From: Gemmatimonadota bacterium
Lineage (GTDB): Bacteria; Gemmatimonadota; Gemmatimonadetes; Longimicrobiales; Gaopeijiaceae
Assembly (NCBI GenBank): GCA_029262115.1
Contig: JAJCZZ010000037.1
Span: 1 to 35,708 of the forward strand
DNA: 35,708 bases
Direction of reading: 5' to 3'
Position 1 is the stretch's first letter, and each line of letters opens with the position of its first letter. Below, piece after piece: positions 26,622 through 31,336 of this stretch. Under the pieces are notes generated by a model. That model saw only the letters and a list, made by a program, of their open reading frames with translations, ran no database searches and was not told the origin of the DNA. The position numbers were made by a program, and so were the translations under genes.

Positions 26622-27137
26622 TTAGTTCATTCGAACCATAACTTCCCGAAGCACCTGCCATCCACCGTGAGCGTCGAGCGCCAGCACAAGGGTGCCATCG
26701 TGCTCCCATACCGGCTGGGCCAAAGTATCCTCTGTGTCGGGGAGGCTGACGCGGTAAAGCCGGATCTGGGCTTCGGTCGCCCCGACCATCTTCAGGGGAC
26801 CGGTGCTCAGAAAGTGCTTCACGCCTCGGGCGAAACTACAGGTGCGTCCGGCACAAGTATACGTATCCGCCGGCGGACGGAGGCGGGCATCGAGAGCCGC
26901 TGCCAACAGCCCTGGCGTCCGGTGACTGAGCCCAGCGTCCTCACACGGATCATACTCTGAGCAAACCACTTGGGGGTCGACCACGATACTACCATCGATT
27001 TCCGAGCGGACATGGGCCGCCACGGCGTTGAAGATCGGAGCGACCCCAGCCGGCACCGCTGGCTGTTGGCCGACCACCGAGGCGGGCGCCGCGAGGAGAG
27101 CGAGAATTGCTGCAGTCCAAAAAACATGCGTTTTCAT
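26622..27137 (-). CDS. Hypothetical secreted protein
   Basis: A 171-residue protein with a clear signal peptide (MKTHVFWTAAILALLAAPAS, cleavage near VVG-Q), no lipobox, and four Cys in two pairs (CSEYDPC and CAGRTC), likely disulfide bonded. The C-terminal region, WEHDGTLVLALDAHGGWQVL, has the look of an NTF2-like or similar small beta-sheet fold, but this is not certain. GAGGA lies 8 nt before the ATG. GC content is lower than in the preceding ADOP gene. Confidence 0.65.
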   Translation of the reverse strand: MKTHVFWTAAILALLAAPASVVGQQPAVPAGVAPIFNAVAAHVRSEIDGSIVVDPQVVCSEYDPCEDAGLSHRTPGLLAAALDARLRPPADTYTCAGRTCSFARGVKHFLSTGPLKMVGATEAQIRLYRVSLPDTEDTLAQPVWEHDGTLVLALDAHGGWQVLREVMVRMN

Positions 27138-27709
27138 CGGCGTTTCCTCGCTCACATGTAGTCGCAGGGCGTGTTCGTAATCATCCCGCTCGCTGGCGTC
27201 CAGCCGAGACACCACGAGCGTCGTGCCGGGATGGTGGGCCGGGGCCGTCGGCAACGGGCGCCCCGTCCCCCGGGACGTTCACGCGGACGGATGAGAGCCT
27301 GACCCTCGACTCGGTCGTGGTTCGCGCGGGGCGCTTCCGATGCTGTGAGACAGGTGACGCGTGCTGGCATGGCACCGCCCAGCCATTTCCTGAGCGGTCC
27401 ACCCGATCCGCGCGGTGGTGCCGTGGCGATCGGGATCCGGGAACGAGTCCTGAACTCTTTGGCGGAGGGGGTCCCTCCTGGCCAAGAGACGATTGGTCGC
27501 CGCCATATGCTCGCGAAGGTGTCCTCCCAGTCCCCTACGCCACCCGGTCAAGAGGACCGACTCAGAACTCAGGAAGAGGGCTCGATATCCCGCCCCGTCA
27601 CGATAGTCCGCGGAATCGACACTAATTCCGACACTGCCACCTCCTGACGACCAGAAAACAAACTACCTCCCAGCGGCGCAAACCGCTGGGAGGCAGCTAC
27701 TCACTACAG
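27138..27709. other. Non-coding stretch before tRNA-Gly copy 1
   Basis: No frame here looks like a real gene; the frames that stay open have no signal, motif or ribosome binding site. The only clear element is the tRNA terminator hairpin at 27666-27693. Some of this may be decayed coding sequence outside the 93-bp repeat. Confidence 0.5.
27666..27693 (-). terminator. Rho-independent terminator of tRNA-Gly copy 1
   Basis: An 11-bp perfect stem (27666-27676 with 27683-27693) and a 6-nt loop lie just beyond the tRNA 3' end. On the minus strand it is followed by TAGTTTGTTTTCTGG, a good T-rich tail. Confidence 0.8.
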
Positions 27710-27799
27710 AGCGGGAGACCGGGCTCGAACCGGCGACCCTCAGCTTGGGAAGCTGATGCTCTACCAACTGAGCTACTCCCGCATGCCCATCAATTCCGC
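27707..27799. repeat. 93-bp direct repeat, copy 1 (putative att site)
   Basis: Identical to 31244-31336. It contains the whole tRNA-Gly gene, 3 bases beyond its 3' end and 17 bases before its 5' end. The left end of copy 1 lies beside the terminator; the right end includes the last codons and stop of the SecB-like gene. Confidence 0.85.
27710..27782 (-). tRNA. tRNA-Gly (anticodon CCC), copy 1
   Basis: A 73-nt cloverleaf on the minus strand. GCGGGAG pairs with CTCCCGC, the discriminator is T, the anticodon loop TTCCCAA is closed by TCAGC/GCTGA, and the T arm carries GTTCGAGC. It is identical to copy 2. Its 5' end lies 7 nt after the SecB-like gene's stop, so it may be transcribed with that gene. 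Confidence 0.96.
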
Positions 27800-28194
27800 T
27801 TCGTGACGGGTAGCAAGACCGGTTTCACACCAGCCTTGCCACTCAGGTTGTACAGGAGTTCACGGAGAAAGGGGAACATGATCGCCGTAGCACCAAACCG
27901 ACAAAAATCGGCGAACGGAGGGGTGACTCCTTCCGTGGACTCGCCCTCTTCCACCTCTACTGAGAACGTCCCGACGAGCACCGCACGGAGCCGGACCGGC
28001 TGGCCCTCGGTCGCGGGGAAGTCAAGTCCCATGAGGACCTCGAAGCTGCGTTCATCTGTCACGTCCCAGTTCCAAACGACGCCGATCTCCGCTTCCTCTT
28101 CGCTCATCCATTCGCTTGGCGCTTGACGGATGTACATCTGCTCCACCGCACTCATCCGTTCCAGGGCGTAGGCCGCCCGTAGGCGTTCGTTCAC
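27790..28194 (-). CDS. SecB-like chaperone
   Basis: A 134-residue protein, no signal peptide. The C-terminal segment GATAIMFPFLRELLYNLSGKAG, given here in part, followed by VKPVLLPV matches the hallmark of SecB proteins: the helix after GA..(I/L)(F/Y)P(F/Y).RE and the final (P)xLLxPV strand. It also fits mycobacterial SecB-like chaperones of toxin-antitoxin-chaperone modules. A beta-rich middle (RLRAVLVGTFSVEVEEGE) fits as well. The start is GTG 28194 without a clear Shine-Dalgarno, and in-frame ATG codons downstream would lose the N-terminal helix. No toxin or antitoxin gene is adjacent. The gene lies inside the tRNA-bounded interval beside an integrase fragment. Confidence 0.6.
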   Translation of the reverse strand: MNERLRAAYALERMSAVEQMYIRQAPSEWMSEEEAEIGVVWNWDVTDERSFEVLMGLDFPATEGQPVRLRAVLVGTFSVEVEEGESTEGVTPPFADFCRFGATAIMFPFLRELLYNLSGKAGVKPVLLPVTKRN

Positions 28195-28570
28195 GGAGTC
28201 GATGATCCGAGACGTTCGGAAGGCCCTGGACCGGATCGCTATCCGAGCCGGCTTCGAAGCCGGCCAAATTCGCCTTCACCAATTGCGCCACACCTACACG
28301 GCCGCCCGAATCCAGACGCTCGATCGGGGCGCACCCGTTGCGATGTACACCGTTGCGCGAGAACTCGGCCATCGTTCGACCACTATGATCGAGGACCGCT
28401 ACGGACACCTCCATGATAGGGCTCCAACCGGCGGGGCGGAGGACGTCGAGTTCGTGCTACGGGAGGCGGCGACTGGACATCTGACGAGAGGAAGCCACGT
28501 AGCCGAGGAGGTCTTGGGCGGAGCCCATTCGGACGCTCCATTCGCCGAGAAGAGGGGACGTGGACCGTGA
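28172..28570 (+). pseudogene. Truncated tyrosine recombinase (integrase)
   Basis: Only the C-terminal catalytic part of a phage-type integrase remains. Numbered from ATG 28202, it shows His26-x-x-Arg29 in HQLRHTY, His57 in RELGHRST and the nucleophile Tyr67 in RYGHLH, followed by a tail of about 50 unrelated residues. The core Arg and Lys and the whole DNA-binding N-terminus are missing; a stop at 28169-28171 closes the frame. It is therefore a remnant that cannot act alone. Its position between two tRNA-Gly repeats marks a former integrative element. Confidence 0.8.
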
Positions 28571-28738
28571 TTCGCCGTCCCTCTGTCCTGATTCTCGGTG
28601 CGGGCTGGCGCATGCCATGCGGTGTCCCTCCCGAAGTCAACTCAAGCGGTATTGAATCCTTTGGATGCCCAGTGGCACGGCGAGGCGCGCGATCTCACGA
28701 GGAACAACCACCCCTTAGACATGGCCCCCCGAGGTGAG

Positions 28739-29887
28739 TTACGTGAAGCAGCGGGAAATGGGCGTATGCTCCGAAGGCGTCCGCTCCAGCGCGTGCCGGC
28801 GAACAACGTGCTCGCCGAATATCCCGGTGACAACGGTCAGAATGTGGTCCTCCCCGACATCGAGAATACGTGCGTCTTCGGGTAGCTCAACCCTGAAGCT
28901 CCCGTCCAAGGACGGCTCCAACACGGTCGCAGTTCGACTAGTTCCGCCTACGCCGTAGTCCTGAAGCCATACGTATCCGAGCGGATCGACGAACAACCCG
29001 TCTGAGACCGGAAGCGTCTCACCGAACCTGTCGACCTCCAGCATAGCGCGTTGCTCGTCCGCGTCGGGGGGTTGGACGCCCGGCGGCGGGTTTGCGGCTT
29101 GCCACGACACGTAAGCCCGTTTCCACTCGACCGTGACAGGCCGGTCCTGAGGAAGGCCTTCATACGGGAACCTCCCTACGACCTCTCCCCCAGCATCCAC
29201 AATGAGTACTTCTGCGACATCGGTGGATGTGATTGCTACGCACTTCCCGTAAGCCGCCGAAAGCGCCTTGGGAGAGAAAGCGGCTACCCCGTGACGTATA
29301 CCGCGGCCCGCCACATGGTACGCGCCACCGAGGGCCCCAGCGACCCTAGCAAATCGCTCCGGACGCCCCATGTCCGGTCCCACCAAGAAATAGTCAACTG
29401 TGTCGCGCTGGAGCCCCACGCGTGGCCGGTACAGGGGCTGCCGCCTTATCACCCAACTCCCTCCCGACATCCTCACCGCCTCGCCAACCACAAAGGGGGT
29501 GCGCATCGGAACCTCCCGCGAGAGGGTCCCGTCATGGAGGAAGCCGGAAGCTCGGCGGTTCGTAGAGTCAAGGACCCAGACGGTGTCTTCTCGAGCTGCC
29601 AAGGCAAACGGGTCCGCGAATTCTCCGGGCCCGAGCCCACCTCGGCCCAACGTCCCGACGAAGCGGCCGTCTCCGTCAAAACGAGAGACCTTCTTATCCC
29701 ATCGGTCGAGAACAATAAACGCTCCATCTCCAGTCAATGCGCCATCCGCCACCAAGGCGAACTCCGCAGGTGGGTTGTGACCGACCGAAATGATTCCCTG
29801 GGTGGAGACGGAGATCTGTCCCAGCGACGTCGAAGGCGTAACAACCACGAGGACTAAGGCGACAGCCCCTGCCCGGCCAAGGGTCAC
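28739..29887 (-). CDS. 6-bladed beta-propeller (NHL-like) secreted protein
   Basis: A 382-residue protein with an N-terminal signal-like segment (VALVLVVVTPSTSLGQ). The body consists of propeller blades of the type FIVLDRWDKKVSRFDGDGRF and LGRGGLGPGEFADPFALA, then repeats near VWVLDSTNRRASGF, LFVDPLGYVWLQDYG and ARILDVGEDHILTVV. Such proteins are common in Gemmatimonadota and Bacteroidota; the ligand is unknown. The start is GTG at 29887, one base after the stop of the upstream Cys-rich gene (TGAGGTG), preferred over the longer frame because the signal segment begins there. Confidence 0.75.
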   Translation of the reverse strand: MTLGRAGAVALVLVVVTPSTSLGQISVSTQGIISVGHNPPAEFALVADGALTGDGAFIVLDRWDKKVSRFDGDGRFVGTLGRGGLGPGEFADPFALAAREDTVWVLDSTNRRASGFLHDGTLSREVPMRTPFVVGEAVRMSGGSWVIRRQPLYRPRVGLQRDTVDYFLVGPDMGRPERFARVAGALGGAYHVAGRGIRHGVAAFSPKALSAAYGKCVAITSTDVAEVLIVDAGGEVVGRFPYEGLPQDRPVTVEWKRAYVSWQAANPPPGVQPPDADEQRAMLEVDRFGETLPVSDGLFVDPLGYVWLQDYGVGGTSRTATVLEPSLDGSFRVELPEDARILDVGEDHILTVVTGIFGEHVVRRHALERTPSEHTPISRCFT

Positions 29888-29888
29888 C

Positions 29889-30293
29889 TCACCGGTCCCC
29901 GGCGAGAACCGTTGCTTCCACGTGCAGTGATATTTCCGCCCCGCAAAAAGCCTCCACCACGAACACCCCACCGCGATCATCCGCTACGAACTCGAGCCAC
30001 CCTGGATCGACGCCGTCAAAGGCGGTTCCTGGGGCCCACAGCGATCCGTCGTACCGCAGAGACACTTCAAGGTCCAGGTCATCCCCCCCGGTGCTGCACG
30101 TGCTGCACCCATTCGGGTCCGGCGCCGAACCCTCGTTGCATGGGATCGACTGGATCTGGTCGACGCACACGCCGTAGCCTGCGACGCCAAAGCAGTACTC
30201 GCATTCGAAGGGGGGGCTCTGCGCCTGGGACTCTTGCGGCGCTATGGCTACCGCGAAAGCGAGAGTGCACAGAGTCATCAGGAATCGTCGCAT
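29889..30293 (-). CDS. Hypothetical secreted Cys-rich protein
   Basis: A 134-residue protein with a signal peptide (LMTLCTLAFAVAIAPQESQA-Q). The mature part starts with a compact Cys cluster, FECEYCFGVAGYGVC, then IPCNEG and GCSTCSTGGDD, then a beta-rich domain with a late lone Cys. The AGAGG box lies 8-10 nt before the ATG at 30293. The gene is coupled to the propeller gene by a one-base gap, so the two probably form one unit. No family is recognised; Cys pairing suggests a small extracellular domain stabilised by disulfides or a metal. Confidence 0.65.
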   Translation of the reverse strand: MRRFLMTLCTLAFAVAIAPQESQAQSPPFECEYCFGVAGYGVCVDQIQSIPCNEGSAPDPNGCSTCSTGGDDLDLEVSLRYDGSLWAPGTAFDGVDPGWLEFVADDRGGVFVVEAFCGAEISLHVEATVLAGDR

Positions 30294-30751
30294 ACCGGCA
30301 CCTCTTAAGCATGAAGATGGGGGGCCGATACTCCGTATGTACAACCTATGGTGCTGACCTCGCAAGCATTTCGTTTCCGACCCCTATGGTCCGACGATGA
30401 ATTAGCTCGATTGCTCGAACCGAGGGAGGTCTTGATGGTGCCGTTTGGTGCCGTCAGTCAACCATTGGGCGGAGGTCGATACGAATCCGCACCCCGGAAG
30501 TCATATCGTGTAATGTGGGCGGAGTCAGAGAGACCCTAGGGGGTGAGGGTCGGATTGTCATGGGGACCGGACCGCCCTCGGTCTGCCTCTCAGTGAGCGA
30601 AGACTCGCGGAATCAATCGGCGTCGAGGAGCCCCCCTCCGTCGACGCGCTCACGTCCTTCCGAAAGCACGCAGCGCTCGAGTAGGACCGAGCGGAGGCTT
30701 GGGCAGATCCTGGTCGCAGATCGCCCATCCACCAGGGCTGGACGGGATTAT
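30294..30751. other. Non-coding stretch in the accessory region
   Basis: 458 bases between two minus-strand genes. A 63-codon plus-strand frame at 30348-30539 has no recognisable motif or ribosome binding site and is not called. The region presumably contains the promoter for the Cys-rich/propeller pair, but only weak TTGCGA/TACATA-like elements can be seen. Confidence 0.45.
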
Positions 30752-31171
30752 CTACTTGCCTCCGATCCGTTTGGGATCGTCCAGCCCGTGGGCCTTGGTG
30801 ACGATCTGCGAGAACGAGGGTGGCAGGGCCTTCTGCCGAATCTTTCCATCGACATACTTCAATAGCTTTCCGCCCTCGACATAGTCTTCGCAAAACCACC
30901 GTCGAAACTCGGCGAAGGCCCGGTCTGGGTAGCACCACGCATTCTGAGGGTTTGATGCGGACTGAGGGAAGATGTCTGGATAGTTGTGCACCCACTTCGT
31001 TCGCTCCCCGTACTTTTCGTCGAAGCCGTGGTCTTTCCAGTGCTTACCCCAGGACAGCATTTCGTAAAGCTCCTGCGCAGGGTCGATCTCGCGGACAGCC
31101 ACCCCAACTCGGGACAGGAGGCCAGGTGAACGCACCAGCGTTCGTCGTCCCCATGTCACTGAGAACGACAC
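30752..31171 (-). CDS. Hypothetical protein, unrecognised
   Basis: Up to 139 residues, no signal peptide. The C-terminal 100 residues are rich in aromatic and charged residues (WGKHWKDHGFDEKYGERTKW, then RWFCEDYVEGGKLLKYVDGK), which is unlike the antisense frames and argues for a real protein, possibly a fragment of a larger one. The N-terminal 25 residues look less protein-like, so the true start may be a downstream GTG or the ATG at Met38. No neighbour or motif gives a function. It lies just inside the second tRNA-Gly repeat. Confidence 0.45.
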   Translation of the reverse strand: MSFSVTWGRRTLVRSPGLLSRVGVAVREIDPAQELYEMLSWGKHWKDHGFDEKYGERTKWVHNYPDIFPQSASNPQNAWCYPDRAFAEFRRWFCEDYVEGGKLLKYVDGKIRQKALPPSFSQIVTKAHGLDDPKRIGGK

Positions 31172-31195
31172 TGACGCATCCGATACAGAAAAGGC

Positions 31196-31235
31196 GAAGG
31201 CGCCGCACGGACACCTAACTCCATGCGACGCCTTC
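31196..31235 (-). terminator. Terminator of tRNA-Gly copy 2
   Basis: GAAGGCG (31196-31202) pairs with CGCCTTC (31229-31235), extended by GCA/TGC across one- or two-base bulges. On the minus strand it is followed by GCCTTTTCTG. It differs from the terminator of copy 1, so the identity between copies stops at the repeat edge. Confidence 0.6.
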
Positions 31236-31243
31236 CTTTACAC

Positions 31244-31336
31244 CAGAGCGGGAGACCGGGCTCGAACCGGCGACCCTCAGCTTGGGAAGCTGATGCTCTA
31301 CCAACTGAGCTACTCCCGCATGCCCATCAATTCCGC
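31244..31336. repeat. 93-bp direct repeat, copy 2 (putative att site)
   Basis: Identical to 27707-27799 over 93 positions, offset 3537. The first mismatches are at 31243 and 31337. It contains the second tRNA-Gly gene and 17 bases upstream of it. Confidence 0.85.
31247..31319 (-). tRNA. tRNA-Gly (anticodon CCC), copy 2
   Basis: A 73-nt cloverleaf identical to the copy at 27710-27782, with its own downstream terminator. It is preceded on the minus strand by about 220 bp of non-coding sequence after the NTF2-like gene, where its promoter would lie. Confidence 0.96.

What the first reader, a model, noticed from the sequence alone, without database searches (positions are those of the whole stretch)
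27707..31336. Duplicated tRNA-Gly bracketing a decayed integrative element
Two tRNA-Gly(CCC) genes are identical over a 93-bp repeat whose edges are sharp (mismatch at the first base on both sides), with a different terminator after each. Between them lie a tyrosine recombinase remnant, a SecB-like gene, a Cys-rich/propeller pair and an orphan ORF, and the DNA looks lower in GC. Integration at a tRNA is established for tyrosine recombinases. The repeat covers the whole tRNA plus 17 upstream bases, which is more than the usual 3'-end att core, so either the element carried the whole tRNA or two tandem tRNA genes were split. The cargo seems domestic rather than phage-like.
Basis: partly seen in the sequence, partly recalled or inferred. 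Interest (0 to 1): 0.7.

Follow-up and report, generated by a model that had tools for sequence, protein, structure and literature searches.

The report
Decayed defence island between duplicate tRNAs
A 3.4-kb worn-out mobile element, holding broken pieces of an integrase and of two known anti-phage defence genes, lies between two identical complete glycine-tRNA genes; such elements at tRNA genes are common, and only the doubling of the whole tRNA gene is unusual.

Summary
In detail: a 93-bp perfect direct repeat (27707-27799, 31244-31336), each copy a complete tRNA-Gly(CCC), 3,537 bp apart, with unrelated flanks and different terminators. The interior is low in GC (61.6%; other windows of that size in the contig at least 66.2%). 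Relatives support an integrative element: the integrase remnant is 61-77% identical to integrases beside tRNA-Gly(CCC) in four relatives, and one relative has an apparently complete 16.5-kb element there. The cargo is not domestic: the 'orphan ORF' is the C-terminal part of BstA (PADLOC E 3e-30), and the SecB-like gene matches the CmdTAC/PD-T4-9 chaperone (E 7e-7). Integrase and BstA are truncated, the SecB-like gene probably too. What does not fit ordinary integration is the repeat: relatives and a free phage carry only a 42-47-bp copy, the tRNA 3' half up to the anticodon loop; here both copies are whole, plus 17 upstream bases, and the usual element arm is absent. Most likely the element carried a whole tRNA-Gly gene and recombined with a resident one; a split tandem pair is the main rival. 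No empty site was found, for lack of a close relative. Known kind; mildly interesting.

The parts
27707..27799 (-). repeat copy A: complete tRNA-Gly(CCC) (27709-27782) with 17 bases upstream; its 5' edge abuts the SecB-like reading frame
27645..27706 (-). terminator hairpin after copy A, unlike the flank after copy B
   Evidence: -35.0 kcal/mol, z -6.4
27790..28194 (-). SecB-like chaperone gene (CmdTAC/PD-T4-9 component C like); its last codons and stop lie in the repeat, so it is probably cut short at the C-terminus
   Evidence: PD-T4-9_C E 6.7e-7, profile 8-115 of 130; homologue G103:C76 (35%) continues past this point and is preceded by an HTH gene; Rv1957 (E 0.07)
28202..28570 (+). C-terminal fragment of a tyrosine recombinase; N-terminal part lost, lies directly beside the SecB-like start
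   Evidence: relatives at tRNA genes
28739..29980 (-). six-bladed beta-propeller protein (DUF5128/NHL-like), cargo of unknown role
   Evidence: E 5.7e-4; E 2.6e-5
29889..30365 (-). Cys-rich protein with a probable signal peptide (by eye), no family match
30752..31171 (-). C-terminal part of a BstA abortive-infection protein; KilA-N-like N-terminal half missing
   Evidence: PADLOC BstA E 3.3e-30, profile 200-286 of 292; PHROG 6287 E 1.6e-21
31172..31243 (-). terminator hairpin after copy B; its first 30 bases resemble the 3' flank of tRNA-Gly(CCC) in relatives such as G136
31244..31336 (-). repeat copy B: complete tRNA-Gly(CCC) (31246-31319) with 17 bases upstream; GC jumps from 0.62 to 0.69 at its right edge

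Best explanation
This is the remnant of a phage-related integrative element of a tRNA-targeting tyrosine-recombinase family that uses tRNA-Gly(CCC) in this bacterial family. Inferred steps: the ancestor held an integrase plus anti-phage cargo (BstA, a CmdTAC-like module). At some point the mobile circle carried a complete tRNA-Gly(CCC) gene with 17 upstream bases, joined to the end of the SecB-like gene, for instance by aberrant excision. It then recombined with a resident tRNA-Gly(CCC), by the integrase at the anticodon loop or by RecA over about 90 bp. That leaves a complete tRNA at each end: copy B with resident upstream DNA and element 3' flank, copy A with element upstream DNA and resident 3' flank. 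Later deletions removed the N-terminal parts of the integrase and of BstA and most of the element. Shown: the repeat, the gene identities, the truncation of integrase and BstA, the low GC, and the integrase family's preference for tRNA sites. Inferred: the element-borne whole tRNA, the direction, and the order of events.
For: Integrase relatives sit at tRNA genes with the C-terminus toward the tRNA 3' end: Gly(CCC) in G136 (77%), G030 (64%), G118 (64%), G020 (61%); Ala(TGC) or Met in others. In the window the fragment points toward copy B's 3' end in the same way. G030 has a 16.5-kb element between full tRNA-Gly and a 47-bp half copy, with integrase, primase/helicase-like and terminase-small-like genes (gene names by eye except the integrase). 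Interior GC 61.6% against a contig mean of 68.9%. The BstA fragment is found in 1 of 121 family genomes and the SecB-like gene in 2 of 121, as expected of cargo. The SecB-like frame runs into the repeat edge and lacks about 12-15 C-terminal profile positions, so that edge looks like a junction inside the element. Copy B's 3' flank resembles the flank of tRNA-Gly(CCC) in relatives; copy A's does not.
Against: No empty site and no circular form was found. Canonical elements of this kind carry only the 3' half, and no relative shows two intact full copies (a degenerate full-length copy in G096 was not followed up). The integrase fragment lies 2.7 kb from copy B, not 0.1-1.1 kb as in relatives, with the propeller pair and BstA fragment between. 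The resident site would need the same 17 upstream bases. Neither copy has the promoter seen before this tRNA in many relatives, so which upstream DNA is native is unclear.
Confidence: 0.5

Rival explanations
1. The tRNA gene was first duplicated in tandem as a 93-bp unit, and foreign DNA later entered between the two copies by any route, including integration at one copy followed by loss of the half-copy.
For: Identity covers exactly one minimal gene (17 upstream bases, tRNA, 2 bases), as in a tandem gene duplication.
Against: No tandem CCC pair was seen in the 121 family genomes; nearly all carry one full copy. No half copy or element arm is left next to either tRNA. The SecB-like frame is cut at the repeat edge, not in spacer DNA.
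Confidence: 0.2
2. An ordinary att pair was altered afterwards: copy A began as a 45-bp half copy and became a full gene through recombination with another tRNA-Gly(CCC) copy or with a second element.
For: The left end is where attR would be, and contigs of five relatives show half copies.
Against: Recombination would need homology on the element side, which a half copy lacks; the typical element arm after the half copy is absent from the window.
Confidence: 0.15
3. The contig is a misassembly that joins two loci at one of the tRNA copies.
For: The genome is a draft in 110 contigs; in relatives several contigs end at this tRNA.
Against: The repeat (93 bp) is shorter than common short reads, both copies lie inside one contig, and integrase and tRNA-Gly(CCC) belong together in relatives.
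Confidence: 0.07

Closest known systems
tRNA-targeting tyrosine-recombinase integrative elements of the same family (G030:C34 29.8-46.4 kb, G020, G136, G118)
   Same: integrase family, tRNA-Gly(CCC) target, integrase C-terminus facing the tRNA 3' end
   Different: theirs end in a 45-47-bp half tRNA (seen in G030 and G020) and G030 has an intact integrase; here two whole tRNAs, a broken integrase, 3.4 kb
BstA abortive-infection proteins of prophages (PMC8585504)
   Same: C-terminal region, profile 200-286 of 292, E 3e-30
   Different: KilA-N-like N-terminal domain missing; probably inactive (inference)
CmdTAC (PD-T4-9), chaperone component (PMC9519451)
   Same: SecB-like protein matching PD-T4-9_C, E 7e-7
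   Different: toxin and antitoxin genes absent; C-terminus probably cut at the repeat
ICEclc family at tRNA-Gly (PMC9960961)
   Same: same class of target, tRNA-Gly including CCC, tyrosine recombinase
   Different: no conjugation genes here; direct repeats of ICEs are given there as 8-60 nt, here 93

Membership tests
tRNA-targeting tyrosine-recombinase integrative element | tyrosine recombinase gene with catalytic C-terminal motifs | tested here: met
   fragment keeps the HQLRHTYTAA and ELGHRS..DRYGH motifs, E 9e-5 Pfam; N-terminal part lost
tRNA-targeting tyrosine-recombinase integrative element | integrase lineage uses tRNA genes | tested here: met
   close relatives next to tRNA-Gly(CCC), Ala(TGC), Met
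tRNA-targeting tyrosine-recombinase integrative element | full tRNA at one end, partial 3' copy at the other | tested here: not met
   both ends are complete tRNAs; no half copy or element arm in the window
tRNA-targeting tyrosine-recombinase integrative element | empty site in relatives | tested here: inconclusive
   only one congener held, without this tRNA in its assembly; no relative with these flanks found
BstA | C-terminal BstA region | tested here: met
   E 3.3e-30; E 1.6e-21
[quoted passage not shown]
   match starts at profile position 200; no such domain in the frame
CmdTAC / TAC | SecB-like chaperone | tested here: met
   E 6.7e-7; Rv1957 E 0.07 only
CmdTAC / TAC | toxin and antitoxin genes adjacent | tested here: not met
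   only the integrase fragment lies upstream
tycheposon (named as a comparison) | tRNA at border, tyrosine recombinase, mobile cargo | not tested
   resemblance only (PMC10872708); the recombinase phylogeny was not examined

The most novel reading that the evidence does not exclude
A mobile element that carries a complete tRNA-Gly(CCC) gene as its attachment site has moved the gene to a new chromosomal place, and the ancestral copy behind the TPR/gltX genes has since been lost, so that the only CCC tRNAs of the genome are element-derived.
Probability: 0.25. Interest if true: 0.5.

Novelty: new member of a known kind. Interest (0 to 1): 0.3.

Why it matters
It adds a decayed island with anti-phage remnants to a tRNA hot spot in this bacterial family (I found no description of it in the papers read), and the relatives show the target there: the 3' half of tRNA-Gly(CCC), ending in the anticodon loop. 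If the whole-tRNA reading is right, it is a case of a mobile element relocating a tRNA gene, which can be tested in close relatives.

Tried and rejected
A partial tRNA copy elsewhere in the window: none (the 15-bp match at 28419 lies inside the integrase frame and is chance-level). The element arm found after half copies in relatives: absent. A remnant of the tRNA at the ancestral site on contig C60: alignment no better than shuffles. Cargo in genome contigs by the propeller protein: none. Relatives with the same 17 upstream bases in genome contigs: none. SecB-like gene on plasmids: none. Viral relatives of the G030 integrase: none. A Gly target for the G014:C52 integrase, as my second notebook entry says, is wrong: its half copy there is tRNA-Ala(TGC).

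Full report
The repeat. ARAGORN places tRNA-Gly(CCC) at 27709-27782 and 31246-31319, both on the minus strand. The exact repeat is 93 bp, 27707-27799 and 31244-31336: 17 bases before the tRNA, the tRNA, and two bases after it. Outside it the copies share nothing, and each is followed by its own strong hairpin. The assembly shows no third CCC copy. The interior has 61.6% GC; the lowest of 475 other windows of this length in the contig has 66.2%. GC rises at once to the right of copy B (0.686) but stays low (0.63-0.65) to the left of copy A across the u210 gene, so the left border of foreign DNA may not be copy A.

The genes between. The integrase fragment (28202-28570 +) keeps the C-terminal motifs and has lost the rest. 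The SecB-like gene matches PADLOC's PD-T4-9_C, the chaperone of CmdTAC (PMC9519451), better than Pfam SecB. A homologue in G103 is preceded by a gene with an HTH, as in toxin-antitoxin-chaperone modules. The 'orphan ORF' is the C-terminal part of BstA, positions 200-286 of 292, E 3e-30 (also PHROG 6287). In BstA the KilA-N-like domain is N-terminal (PMC8585504) and is missing here. The BstA fragment has no match in any other of 121 family genomes, the SecB-like gene in one other. The propeller and Cys-rich genes stay unexplained. So integrase and BstA have lost their N-termini, the SecB-like gene probably its C-terminus, and the recognisable cargo is related to phages and defence, not domestic.

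Relatives. In this family solitary tRNA-Gly(CCC) normally lies 107-226 bp behind a TPR gene, often after gltX. Integrases related to the fragment sit at tRNA genes with the C-terminus toward the tRNA: Gly(CCC) in G136, G030, G118, G020; Ala(TGC) or Met elsewhere. The closest are G014:C52 (79%, next to a tRNA-Ala(TGC) half copy) and G136 (77%, Gly). Partial copies of tRNA-Gly(CCC) occur in G030 (same contig, 16.5 kb from the full copy), G020, G104, G029 and, in a contig that may be foreign to its bin, G096; each runs 42-47 bp from the tRNA 3' end into the anticodon loop. Two viral contigs from an unrelated phage carry the same half, without the rest of the tRNA, about 100 bp from a gene that looks like an integrase by eye. 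This is the classical arrangement with crossover at the anticodon loop (PMC8371274).

What does not fit. Both window copies are whole and include 17 upstream bases. The DNA that follows the half copies in relatives does not occur in the window. The integrase fragment is 2.7 kb from copy B. So the window is not a plain attL/attR pair. The SecB-like reading frame ends inside the 17 bases, and its homologues go on, which suggests that the junction between cargo and tRNA block belongs to the element. I therefore favour an element that carried a whole tRNA gene and recombined with a resident one. A split tandem pair remains possible.

The ancestral site. The G000 TPR gene lies at C60:285-1760, and the 284 bp between it and the contig end hold no tRNA-Gly and no match better than shuffles. 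The tRNA may thus have moved, or lie beyond the contig end. Many relatives have a TTGAC/TA.ATT promoter before this tRNA; neither window copy does, but several relatives also lack it, so no conclusion on expression follows.

Limits. One congener is held and shows no tRNA-Gly(CCC). No genome in genome contigs shares the 17 bases. The empty-site test could not be made. Gene calls in relatives rest on a simple reading-frame script, and names for G030's cargo other than the integrase are by eye. The integrase tree rests on about 70-120 residues with low support at the window's branch.

Noticed in passing
L131 1349-17930 (G030:C34 29848-46430): apparently complete 16.5-kb element between tRNA-Gly(CCC) and a 47-bp half copy, with integrase, primase/helicase-like and terminase-small-like genes: perhaps a phage satellite
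   Followed up: partly
L158 5278-5323, L159 8553-8598: two nearly identical viral contigs with a 46-bp tRNA-Gly(CCC) half about 100 bp from an integrase-like gene: probably a free phage attP
   Followed up: partly
L142 9836-9966 (G014:C52): integrase, tRNA-Ala(TGC) half copy and element arm in a row at the contig end, as in an attP of a circular form
   Followed up: no
L137 2560-2635 (G096:C240): degenerate full-length tRNA-Gly(CCC)-like copy (82%) 3.7 kb from a half copy; the contig may be foreign to its bin
   Followed up: no
window 26622-27254: u210, a low-GC gene of unknown family left of copy A, with one distant relative in the family (G014, 34%); the foreign stretch may extend over it
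   Followed up: partly
L067 8979-9773 (G020:C42): 264-aa gene between tRNA-Gly(CCC) and the integrase, weak match to a candidate defence family PDC-S47 (E 0.001)
   Followed up: no
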